The notes beneath the pieces are model-generated. The model was not told the DNA's origin and searched no databases. It saw only the letters and a list, made by a program, of their open reading frames with translations. A program made the translations under genes and the position numbers. This document shows, in pieces, positions 4,782 to 29,635 of a stretch of DNA of 64,000 nt (position 1 is the stretch's first letter; each line of letters opens with the position of its first letter). This DNA comes from Mycobacterium vicinigordonae (GTDB taxonomy: Bacteria > Actinomycetota > Actinomycetes > Mycobacteriales > Mycobacteriaceae): positions 434,001-498,000 of the forward strand of contig NZ_CP059165.1 in the NCBI RefSeq assembly GCF_013466425.1. The letters are read 5' to 3'.

Positions 4782-5003
4782 GTGACCAATCCTTTTGATG
4801 ACGGCAACGGCAGCTTTTTGGTACTGATCAACGAACAGGAACAGCACAGCCTCTGGCCTGCATTCGCCGATGTGCCATCGGGCTGGCGGGTCGTGCACGG
4901 GGAAGCCCCGCGCGCGGAGTGTCTGCATTACGTAGAACAAAGCTGGCCCGACATACGACCTATCAGTCTGCGAGAGAGGCTGGCTGCTAGCAGCGACAAG
5001 TGA
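4782..5003 (+). CDS. MbtH-like protein (NRPS adenylation partner)
   Basis: A 73-aa MbtH-family chaperone or activator that binds adenylation domains and is often needed for their solubility and activity. The sequence has the family pattern: NPFDDGNG at the start, QHSLWPAFADVPSGW in the middle and YVEQSWPDIRP near the end, with the invariant Trp residues present. The GTG at 4782 is chosen because GGGGAG lies seven bases upstream and the product begins VTNPFDD like family members; an ATG at 4710 would add 24 unrelated residues. The stop codon overlaps the GTG start of the NRPS by four bases (GTGA), so the two are translationally coupled and this is surely its dedicated partner. Confidence 0.95.
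   Translation: MTNPFDDGNGSFLVLINEQEQHSLWPAFADVPSGWRVVHGEAPRAECLHYVEQSWPDIRPISLRERLAASSDK

Positions 5004-29635: not shown

What the first reader, a model, noticed from the sequence alone, without database searches (positions are those of the whole stretch)
5000..29635. Seven-module NRPS predicting a new glycosylated lipopeptide
Domain order and codes give (acyl?)-D-Thr, bulky/aromatic L, bulky/aromatic D, unknown L, L-Lys/Orn, D-Thr, then a terminal C-T. The two identical Thr codes (DFWSVGMVHK) and a Lys/Orn-like code DAESLAGICK are the firmest parts. This is not the tetrapeptide of the glycopeptidolipids nor the M. avium subsp. paratuberculosis lipopentapeptide, as I know them. The locus lies in the M. 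tuberculosis ptbB region, which in that species has no NRPS.
Basis: partly seen in the sequence, partly recalled or inferred. Interest (0 to 1): 0.88.

Follow-up and report, generated by a model that had tools for sequence, protein, structure and literature searches.

The report
Six-residue relative of GL8P lipopeptide synthetase
This mycobacterium carries one giant enzyme that very likely builds a sugar-decorated fatty six-amino-acid peptide, a shortened relative of the eight-residue surface lipid GL8P recently described in M. abscessus, and in many relatives the enzyme's odd tail lies beside a methyl-adding enzyme that may cap the product.

Summary
It belongs to the family that makes GL8P, the glycosylated lipooctapeptide of M. 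abscessus (PMC11978893). The solved GL8P structure re-reads the codes: modules 1-5 are Thr, Ala, Phe, Ile, Tyr. So residue 2 is not aromatic and residue 5 is not Lys/Orn; both Thr calls stand. Compared with four GL8P-type loci, A2-A5 and C6 match the same positions of the first gene, while T6, E6 and the last C match the end of the second gene. GL8P's Leu-Thr modules are bypassed and there is no second gene. Predicted core: acyl-D-Thr-Ala-D-Phe-Ile-Tyr-D-Thr, a code order I found in no other sequence held. Two glycosyltransferases, P450, Sap-like and MmpL/MmpS genes match GL8P-type loci. The terminal C-T is not decay: in the 30 best-matching loci, 30 keep both motifs and 28 have an ICMT-family methyltransferase next door. 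The published GL8P formulas hold one CH2 more than the free acid, which suggests a C-terminal methyl ester. New variant of a known kind; no chemistry was done.

The parts
201..1481 (+). glycosyltransferase 1 (GT28/EryCIII-like), probable rhamnosyltransferase
   Evidence: Pfam PF06722, PF03033; 77-80% identical to a gene in 4 of 4 GL8P-type loci. Sugar specificity inferred.
1474..2802 (+). glycosyltransferase 2 (same family)
   Evidence: Pfam; 74-77% identical in 4 of 4 GL8P-type loci
2825..4246 (-). cytochrome P450
   Evidence: PF00067; 70-75% identical in 4 of 4 GL8P-type loci; best hit other than itself in the protein database 77%
4710..5003 (+). MbtH-like protein; its ORF overlaps the start of the synthetase ORF by 4 bases
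   Evidence: PF03621 at G000:438785-438940, 97.6 bits, cut-off 27; ORF. MbtH was not compared in the four loci (ORFs under 100 aa were left out); the GL8P paper lists one for the M. abscessus locus.
5000..9556 (+). NRPS module 1: starter C, A (Thr, DFWSVGMVHK), T, E
   Evidence: boundaries approximate
9557..12652 (+). NRPS module 2: C, A (Ala, DVWSVAAVYK), T
   Evidence: residue by GL8P calibration
12653..17191 (+). NRPS module 3: C, A (Phe, DVWTVVAMCK), T, E
17192..20278 (+). NRPS module 4: C, A (Ile, DFWTVGVMWK), T
20279..23440 (+). NRPS module 5: C, A (Tyr, DAESLAGICK), T
23441..28036 (+). NRPS module 6: C like GL8P module 6; A is Thr-type; T and E like GL8P module 8; join somewhere in about 24500-25600
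28037..29632 (+). terminal C-T without an A domain; its C matches the end of the second GL8P-type gene at 68-71%
29645..30316 (-). ICMT/PEMT-family membrane methyltransferase, convergent, 9 bases from the synthetase ORF; proposed C-terminal carboxyl methyltransferase
   Evidence: PF04140 46.2 bits, cut-off 24; similar to solved ICMT 4a2n, E 7.4e-8; adjacent in 28 of 30 C-T loci, own included

Best explanation
The gene is the synthetase of a GL8P-type glycosylated lipopeptide, in a variant that makes six residues instead of eight. Inferred path: the starter C domain acylates Thr1; six modules with MbtH build acyl-D-(allo)Thr-L-Ala-D-Phe-L-Ile-L-Tyr-D-(allo)Thr; the terminal C-T takes part in release; two glycosyltransferases add sugar, by analogy to the last Thr; methyltransferases decorate it; Sap-like and MmpL/MmpS proteins export it. 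The synthetase arose by a join of GL8P module 6 (C) to module 8 (A-T-E) plus the terminal C-T, which removed the Leu and one Thr module and fused two genes into one. Shown: architecture, codes, homology, shared neighbours, the mosaic of domain matches. Inferred: residues (calibrated on a solved relative), direction of the change, tailoring, release, and a C-terminal methyl ester.
For: The code order Thr-Ala-Phe-Ile-Tyr-Leu, with at most one code letter changed per module, stands in 9 of 10 fetched genome loci (the tenth, G117, differs) and in an M. abscessus protein (P0008). Solved GL8P is T-A-F-I-Y(OMe)-L-T-T with D-alloThr, D-Phe, D-Leu. Specificity segments of A1-A5 match best the same position of P0008 (73-87%), and A6 matches P0008 A1, Thr (73%). 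Of 72 Mps1-sized proteins in the eight commonest code pairs, 54 carry DFWSVGMVHK second, the Thr position of GPL (recalled). Against four GL8P-type loci, A2, A3 and A4 match the same position in 4 of 4, A5 in 3 of 4, C6 in 4 of 4; T6, E3 and C7 match the second gene best in 4 of 4; the last T in 3 of 3 where that piece was cut. Neighbour genes shared. No second synthetase gene: of 18 C-domain hits in the genome, 10 lie in this gene, 5 in one distant locus (about 4.14-4.15 Mb) and 3 are single.
Against: No product has been seen. C3 matches GL8P C6 rather than C3 in 4 of 4, and C4, C5, E1 and E2 match mixed positions, so the modules have exchanged pieces and best-match tracing is blurred. Over whole A domains P0008 is best only for A4; for A2 and A3, P0050/P0114 score higher and for A5 P0050 does by a little (P0008 A1 fell out by a length filter). 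The Tyr code differs from P0008 at one position (G for A), although two eight-residue loci have the same G. A codes failed once in GL8P itself (Leu6 was predicted Thr). PKS, nucleotidyltransferase and RMNT genes matched in only 2 of 4 loci. The last C-T could load a further residue in trans. An assembly collapse cannot be checked without reads.
Confidence: 0.75

Rival explanations
1. A lipopeptide with bulky residue 2 and Lys/Orn at residue 5.
For: E at the third code position of A5 also occurs in basic-residue codes (recalled).
Against: The near-identical code DAESLAAICK sits at position 5 of the M. abscessus GL8P-type synthetase, and residue 5 of GL8P was shown by NMR to be O-methyl-Tyr; DVWSVAAVYK sits at position 2, shown to be Ala.
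Confidence: 0.05
2. The six-module form is an assembly collapse of an ordinary eight-module GL8P-type synthetase.
For: Modules are alike; exact repeats of 539 and 268 bases occur in the gene; the join falls between similar modules.
Against: The genome is one 6.27 Mb contig; a 539-base exact repeat was kept in two separate copies; a collapse would have to remove a whole gene boundary and leave an open frame. A different single-gene synthetase with six A domains and a terminal C-T exists in G324, so the layout is not odd in itself.
Confidence: 0.1
3. The terminal C-T is a true seventh module loaded in trans, so the product is a lipoheptapeptide.
For: Both motifs are kept in 30 of 30 copies. The genome has an A-domain-like stretch, 41% identical to A2, in a 1,338-aa frame at 6011262-6012665 outside the two synthetase loci, besides weaker adenylate-forming hits.
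Against: The solved GL8P has eight residues for eight A domains and no ninth, although the second genes of 4 of 4 GL8P-type loci examined end in C-T.
Confidence: 0.13
4. The ICMT-family neighbour does not act on the lipopeptide; it is a conserved neighbour with another role, and the extra CH2 of GL8P lies elsewhere or comes from methanol in the extraction.
For: 335 of 396 genomes have an ICMT match at 1e-45 against 249 of 396 with a C-T match at 1e-100, so at least 86 have the one without the other. The protein passes a PEMT profile as well as ICMT. The GL8P text passages I searched name no C-terminal methyl ester, and the extraction heats in methanol.
Against: 28 of 30 C-T ends have it within 16-117 bases (one at 767), in both orientations; the two misses are a contig edge and a following synthetase gene.
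Confidence: 0.4

Closest known systems
GL8P locus of M. abscessus (MAB_4689c-MAB_4705c; synthetases MAB_4691c and MAB_4690c), PMC11978893
   Same: Order of modules 1-5 with E at 1 and 3, MbtH, glycosyltransferases, methyltransferases, MmpL and MmpS (paper's list).
   Different: One gene instead of two; module 6 loads Thr, not Leu; no modules 7-8; beside the ptbB-like gene, which had no counterpart in the flanks of the four genomes.
Classical glycopeptidolipid (GPL) synthetases Mps1/Mps2
   Same: Acylated peptide, Thr from the same code, sugar decoration.
   Different: GPL is a tripeptide-amino alcohol (PMC3537567, start of abstract in a search listing); here six residues and no reductase domain.
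Lipopentapeptide L5P of M. avium subsp. paratuberculosis
   Same: Mycobacterial lipopeptide; L5P carries a C-terminal methyl ester (PMC8103206, one passage).
   Different: Other sequence (D-Phe-MeVal-Ile-Phe-Ala, start of abstract); no methyltransferase domain in the window synthetase.

Membership tests
GL8P-type synthetase | codes Thr-Ala-Phe-Ile-Tyr in modules 1-5, E in 1 and 3 | tested here: met
GL8P-type synthetase | module 6 Leu with E | tested here: not met
   A6 is DFWSVGMVHK (Thr), with E
GL8P-type synthetase | second, bimodular gene for residues 7-8 | tested here: not met
   no such C domains elsewhere in the genome; gene order after 29635 is ICMT-like, phosphatase, acyl-CoA dehydrogenase
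GL8P-type synthetase | terminal E-C-T followed by an ICMT-family gene | tested here: met
   (feature found here in GL8P-type loci, not taken from the paper)
GL8P-type locus | MbtH, two GTs, P450, Sap-like, MmpL x2, MmpS nearby | tested here: met
GL8P | rhamnosylated lipooctapeptide product | not testable with these tools
   needs lipid MS; the codes speak for six residues
classical GPL synthetase | tetrapeptide-size core ending in an amino alcohol by a reductase domain | tested here: not met
   six A domains, no PF07993
MAP lipopentapeptide L5P synthetase | five residues with an N-methylated second residue | tested here: not met
   six A domains, no methyltransferase domain
ICMT family (29645-30316) | ICMT profile above cut-off | tested here: met
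   PF04140 46.2 vs 24 bits; PF04191 (PEMT) 45.9 vs 25 and PF01222 29.1 vs 27 also pass
ICMT family (29645-30316) | methyl ester formed on a lipidated C-terminal carboxylate | not testable with these tools
   enzyme assay needed

The most novel reading that the evidence does not exclude
The terminal C-T didomain and the neighbouring ICMT-family membrane methyltransferase form an undescribed release-and-cap system of mycobacterial lipopeptides: C-T frees the peptide without a thioesterase and the ICMT-like enzyme turns its C-terminus into a methyl ester, in this hexapeptide, in GL8P and in many uncharacterised relatives.
Probability: 0.38. Interest if true: 0.75.

Novelty: new variant of a known kind. 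Interest (0 to 1): 0.56.

Why it matters
It suggests that the GL8P family evolves by module loss and gene fusion, calibrates mycobacterial A-domain codes on a solved product (correcting a Lys/Orn and an aromatic call), and makes the question of how these lipopeptides are released and capped testable by a single gene removal and mass spectrometry. GL8P is recognised by patient sera and needed for full virulence of M. abscessus (PMC11978893), so variants bear on serodiagnosis.

Tried and rejected
Lys/Orn at module 5: rejected on the GL8P calibration. Second synthetase gene elsewhere in the genome: not found. Classical GPL and L5P: rejected on module count and on lack of reductase and methyltransferase domains. 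Thioesterase release: no TE domain in the window synthetase, none in one whole GL8P-type second gene (P0242 from G232), and no room for one in three (47-60 aa after the last T motif in G088, G068, G232), although the GL8P paper's figure legend names a Te domain; MAB_4690c itself was not seen by name. L5P as a second calibration: P0050, P0057, P0109 and P0114 show orders that fit part or all of Phe-MeVal-Ile-Phe-Ala, but their last shown module has an E domain that does not fit L-Ala, so I did not rely on it. Trans-acting A domain: one search used a query that covered the second part of C2 and only the first half of A2, so it could not answer; repeated with whole A2, which leaves one 41% candidate. 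The gene at G000:412772-414193, which I had taken for an acyltransferase by eye, has no Pfam match. The species was not identified: the best P450 hit other than itself is 77% identical. The search with the end of a second GL8P-type gene listed 120 of 6,774 proteins, mainly GPL-type, and no named MAB_4690c; of little use. The supplement of the GL8P paper (Data S1, predicted products of other species) could not be read, so I cannot exclude that the six-residue order is listed there. That the C-T/ICMT pair is undescribed rests on searches (listings only; 20 of 101, 15 of 62 and 5 of 5 papers shown); for a mycobacterial lipohexapeptide (10 of 1,231 shown).

Full report
WHAT IS THERE. The open frame 5000-29635 (+) encodes 8,211 aa. 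Pfam gives Condensation, AMP-binding, AMP-binding_C and PP-binding domains only. Motifs place C-A-T-E, C-A-T, C-A-T-E, C-A-T, C-A-T, C-A-T-E, C-T. The window is G000:C1:434001-498000 of a 6.27 Mb single-contig genome; a C-domain profile finds 18 places there: 10 in this gene, 5 in one distant locus (about 4.14-4.15 Mb, probably mycobactin, inferred) and 3 single domains. So this is the only long lipopeptide-type synthetase of the genome, and no separate classical GPL synthetase was seen.

CODES. Six A domains were read at positions anchored on their motifs (GrsA numbering recalled): DFWSVGMVHK, DVWSVAAVYK, DVWTVVAMCK, DFWTVGVMWK, DAESLAGICK, DFWSVGMVHK. Their meaning comes from relatives. A protein search with residues 1-2000 scored 592 proteins and listed 120. 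An M. abscessus protein (P0008) carries the same first five codes, with A for G at one place of the fifth, followed by DFWTLGAVYK. Partial proteins from M. fortuitum, M. peregrinum, M. setense, M. neworleansense, M. pulveris, M. chelonae and M. immunogenum show modules 2-6 of that order, with single-letter changes. In the four examined further (G068, G232, G119, G088) it is followed by a second gene A(Thr)-T-C-A(Thr)-T-E-C-T (the last T motif of G119 was seen only with the looser pattern).

THE KNOWN PRODUCT. PMC11978893 (outline, sections 6, 7, 8 and 12 and passages read) describes MAB_4691c (hexamodular) and MAB_4690c (bimodular) of M. abscessus. The MAB_4690c mutant loses GL8P, solved as N-stearyl T-A-F-I-Y(OMe)-L-T-T with D-alloThr, D-Phe and D-Leu and rhamnoses on Thr8. 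The number and order of modules and E domains match the genes above, so DVWSVAAVYK is Ala, DVWTVVAMCK Phe, DFWTVGVMWK Ile, DAESLA(A/G)ICK Tyr, DFWTLGAVYK Leu, DFWSVGMVHK Thr. The link between P0008 and MAB_4691c rests on this match, not on an accession. The specificity segments of window A1-A5 match the same positions of P0008 best, at 73-87%, and A6 matches its A1. Over whole A domains this is less clear: P0008 leads only for A4, while P0050 or P0114 lead for A2, A3 and A5, and P0008 A1 dropped out by a length filter. Thr is also supported by Mps1-sized proteins, most of them with DFWSVGMVHK as the second code (54 of 72 in the eight commonest pairs).

THE DIFFERENCE. Window domains were compared with those of four GL8P-type loci. 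A2, A3 and A4 match the same position in 4 of 4, A5 in 3 of 4, C1, C2 and C6 in 4 of 4. C3 matches C6 in 4 of 4, and C4, C5, E1 and E2 match mixed positions, so pieces have been exchanged between modules. A1 and A6 match Thr domains of either gene. T6, E3 and C7 match the second gene's T8, E8 and terminal C best in 4 of 4 (E 68-71% against 60-64% for the next; C 68-71% against 62-65%). The terminal T matches in 3 of 3 (in G119 the piece was not cut). A scan in 60-residue steps puts the change between about residues 6500 and 6860: upstream the two GL8P modules score alike, and at 6859-6918 mean identity is 34% to module 6 against 72% to module 8. The plain reading is a join of module 6 to module 8 that dropped the Leu and one Thr module and fused two genes. 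In the proteins held (P0001-P0361) 29 code pairs start with DAES; only the window has DFWSVGMVHK next. A search with the terminal C-T in 396 genomes listed about 150 places (more not listed). Of the long single frames there that end in C-T I decoded G107 (8115 aa), G122 (10824), G060, G320 and G324 (8223, six A domains and C-T): all have other code orders. Frames on contig fragments and several others were not decoded. So a one-gene six-A-plus-C-T layout is not unique, but this code order was met only here. That deletion and not insertion took place is inferred from this. The gene has exact repeats of 539 bases (A2/A5) and 268 bases (A2/A5/A6), so exchange between modules has happened, and an assembly error, though unlikely, is a fair rival.

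THE CLUSTER. An MbtH ORF overlaps the start of the synthetase. ORFs of the window and 80 kb upstream were compared with 100-114 kb around the four loci (ORFs under 100 aa and queries of 2,600 aa or more left out). Found in 4 of 4: both glycosyltransferases, P450, a Sap-like protein (G000:431946), a sulfotransferase-like protein (430792; Pfam below its cut-off), a methyltransferase (420981), a protein without Pfam match (412772), two MmpL and an MmpS (406254-412493), and the ICMT-like gene. Found in 2 of 4 (G068, G232): the PKS (414248; passes the NCBIfam Pks2 cut-off), the nucleotidyltransferase (427403) and the RMNT methyltransferase (424747). The ptbB-like phosphatase, acyl-CoA dehydrogenase and transhydrogenase genes beyond had no match above 120 bits in those flanks (two weak matches in G088 lie further on), so the cluster seems to sit at another chromosomal site.

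THE TAIL. The last C-T has no A domain, yet is kept. In the 30 loci that fetched (the best-scoring ones, own included), 30 keep the HHxxxDG-type motif and 30 the T serine motif. In 28 of 30 an ICMT/PEMT-family gene lies 16-117 bases away by alignment ends (one at 767); 23 are convergent and 5 co-directional. The two without it are a contig edge (L116) and a locus where another NRPS gene follows (L126; read from contig L016 of the same length). The family is common (335 of 396 genomes at 1e-45, against 249 of 396 with a C-T match), so presence alone says little; adjacency does. The protein passes ICMT and PEMT profiles and resembles the solved ICMT 4a2n at E 7.4e-8. The published formulas C71H116N8O18 and C90H150N8O24 each hold exactly one CH2 more than the free acids computed from the published residues, sugars and acyl groups, and with it the masses fit (1391.830, 1750.066). 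The passages searched name no such methyl. A C-terminal methyl ester would explain it, L5P has one (PMC8103206, passage), and an ICMT-like enzyme beside 28 of 30 such ends is a natural maker. The alternative is methanolysis, since the extraction heats in methanol, or a methyl elsewhere.

HOW IT MOST LIKELY WORKS. Shown: parts, order, homology, linkage. Inferred: acyl transfer by the starter C; assembly of acyl-D-Thr-Ala-D-Phe-Ile-Tyr-D-Thr; release with the terminal C-T; methyl ester by the ICMT-like enzyme; rhamnosylation of the last Thr; export by MmpL. The chemistry of the C-T step is the least certain part; a trans-loaded seventh residue is not excluded.

VERDICT. Observation confirmed, interpretation partly supported; a new variant of the known GL8P kind, with one lead (C-T plus ICMT) that may be new for mycobacterial lipopeptides at large.

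Noticed in passing
window 11822-12360, 22610-23148, 25930-26197: Exact repeats of 539 bases (A2/A5) and 268 bases (A2/A5/A6) inside the gene: recent gene conversion between modules.
   Followed up: partly
L009:16792-17877 and L009:18912-19952 (just upstream of the window): Two sulfotransferase-like genes, below the Pfam cut-off; the first is matched in 4 of 4 GL8P-type loci. A sulfated lipopeptide is possible.
   Followed up: no
PMC11978893 formulas: Published GL8P formulas hold one CH2 more than the free acid built from the published parts.
   Followed up: partly
proteins P0005, P0009, P0010, P0012, P0014: Modules 2-6 of the eight-residue code order in M. peregrinum, pulveris, setense, neworleansense and fortuitum (partial proteins), beyond the M. 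abscessus complex and close relatives named by the GL8P paper.
   Followed up: partly
G006:C1:176673-224036: An open frame of 16,070 aa with many near-periodic NRPS modules in an unnamed mycobacterial genome.
   Followed up: no
L166/L167 (G324:C23): Another one-gene synthetase with six A domains and a terminal C-T, with a different code order; a further lipohexapeptide candidate.
   Followed up: partly
G000:C1:6011262-6012665: An amino-acid-type A domain (41% to A2) in a 1,338-aa frame outside the synthetase loci, without a C-domain hit.
   Followed up: no
L010:8427-10286 (-), L010:10494-12125 (-), window 36324-37751 (-): Three PE-PPE-domain proteins near the cluster.
   Followed up: no
L145 (G060) 1955-3296: Two ICMT-family genes in tandem after one C-T synthetase.
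   Followed up: no
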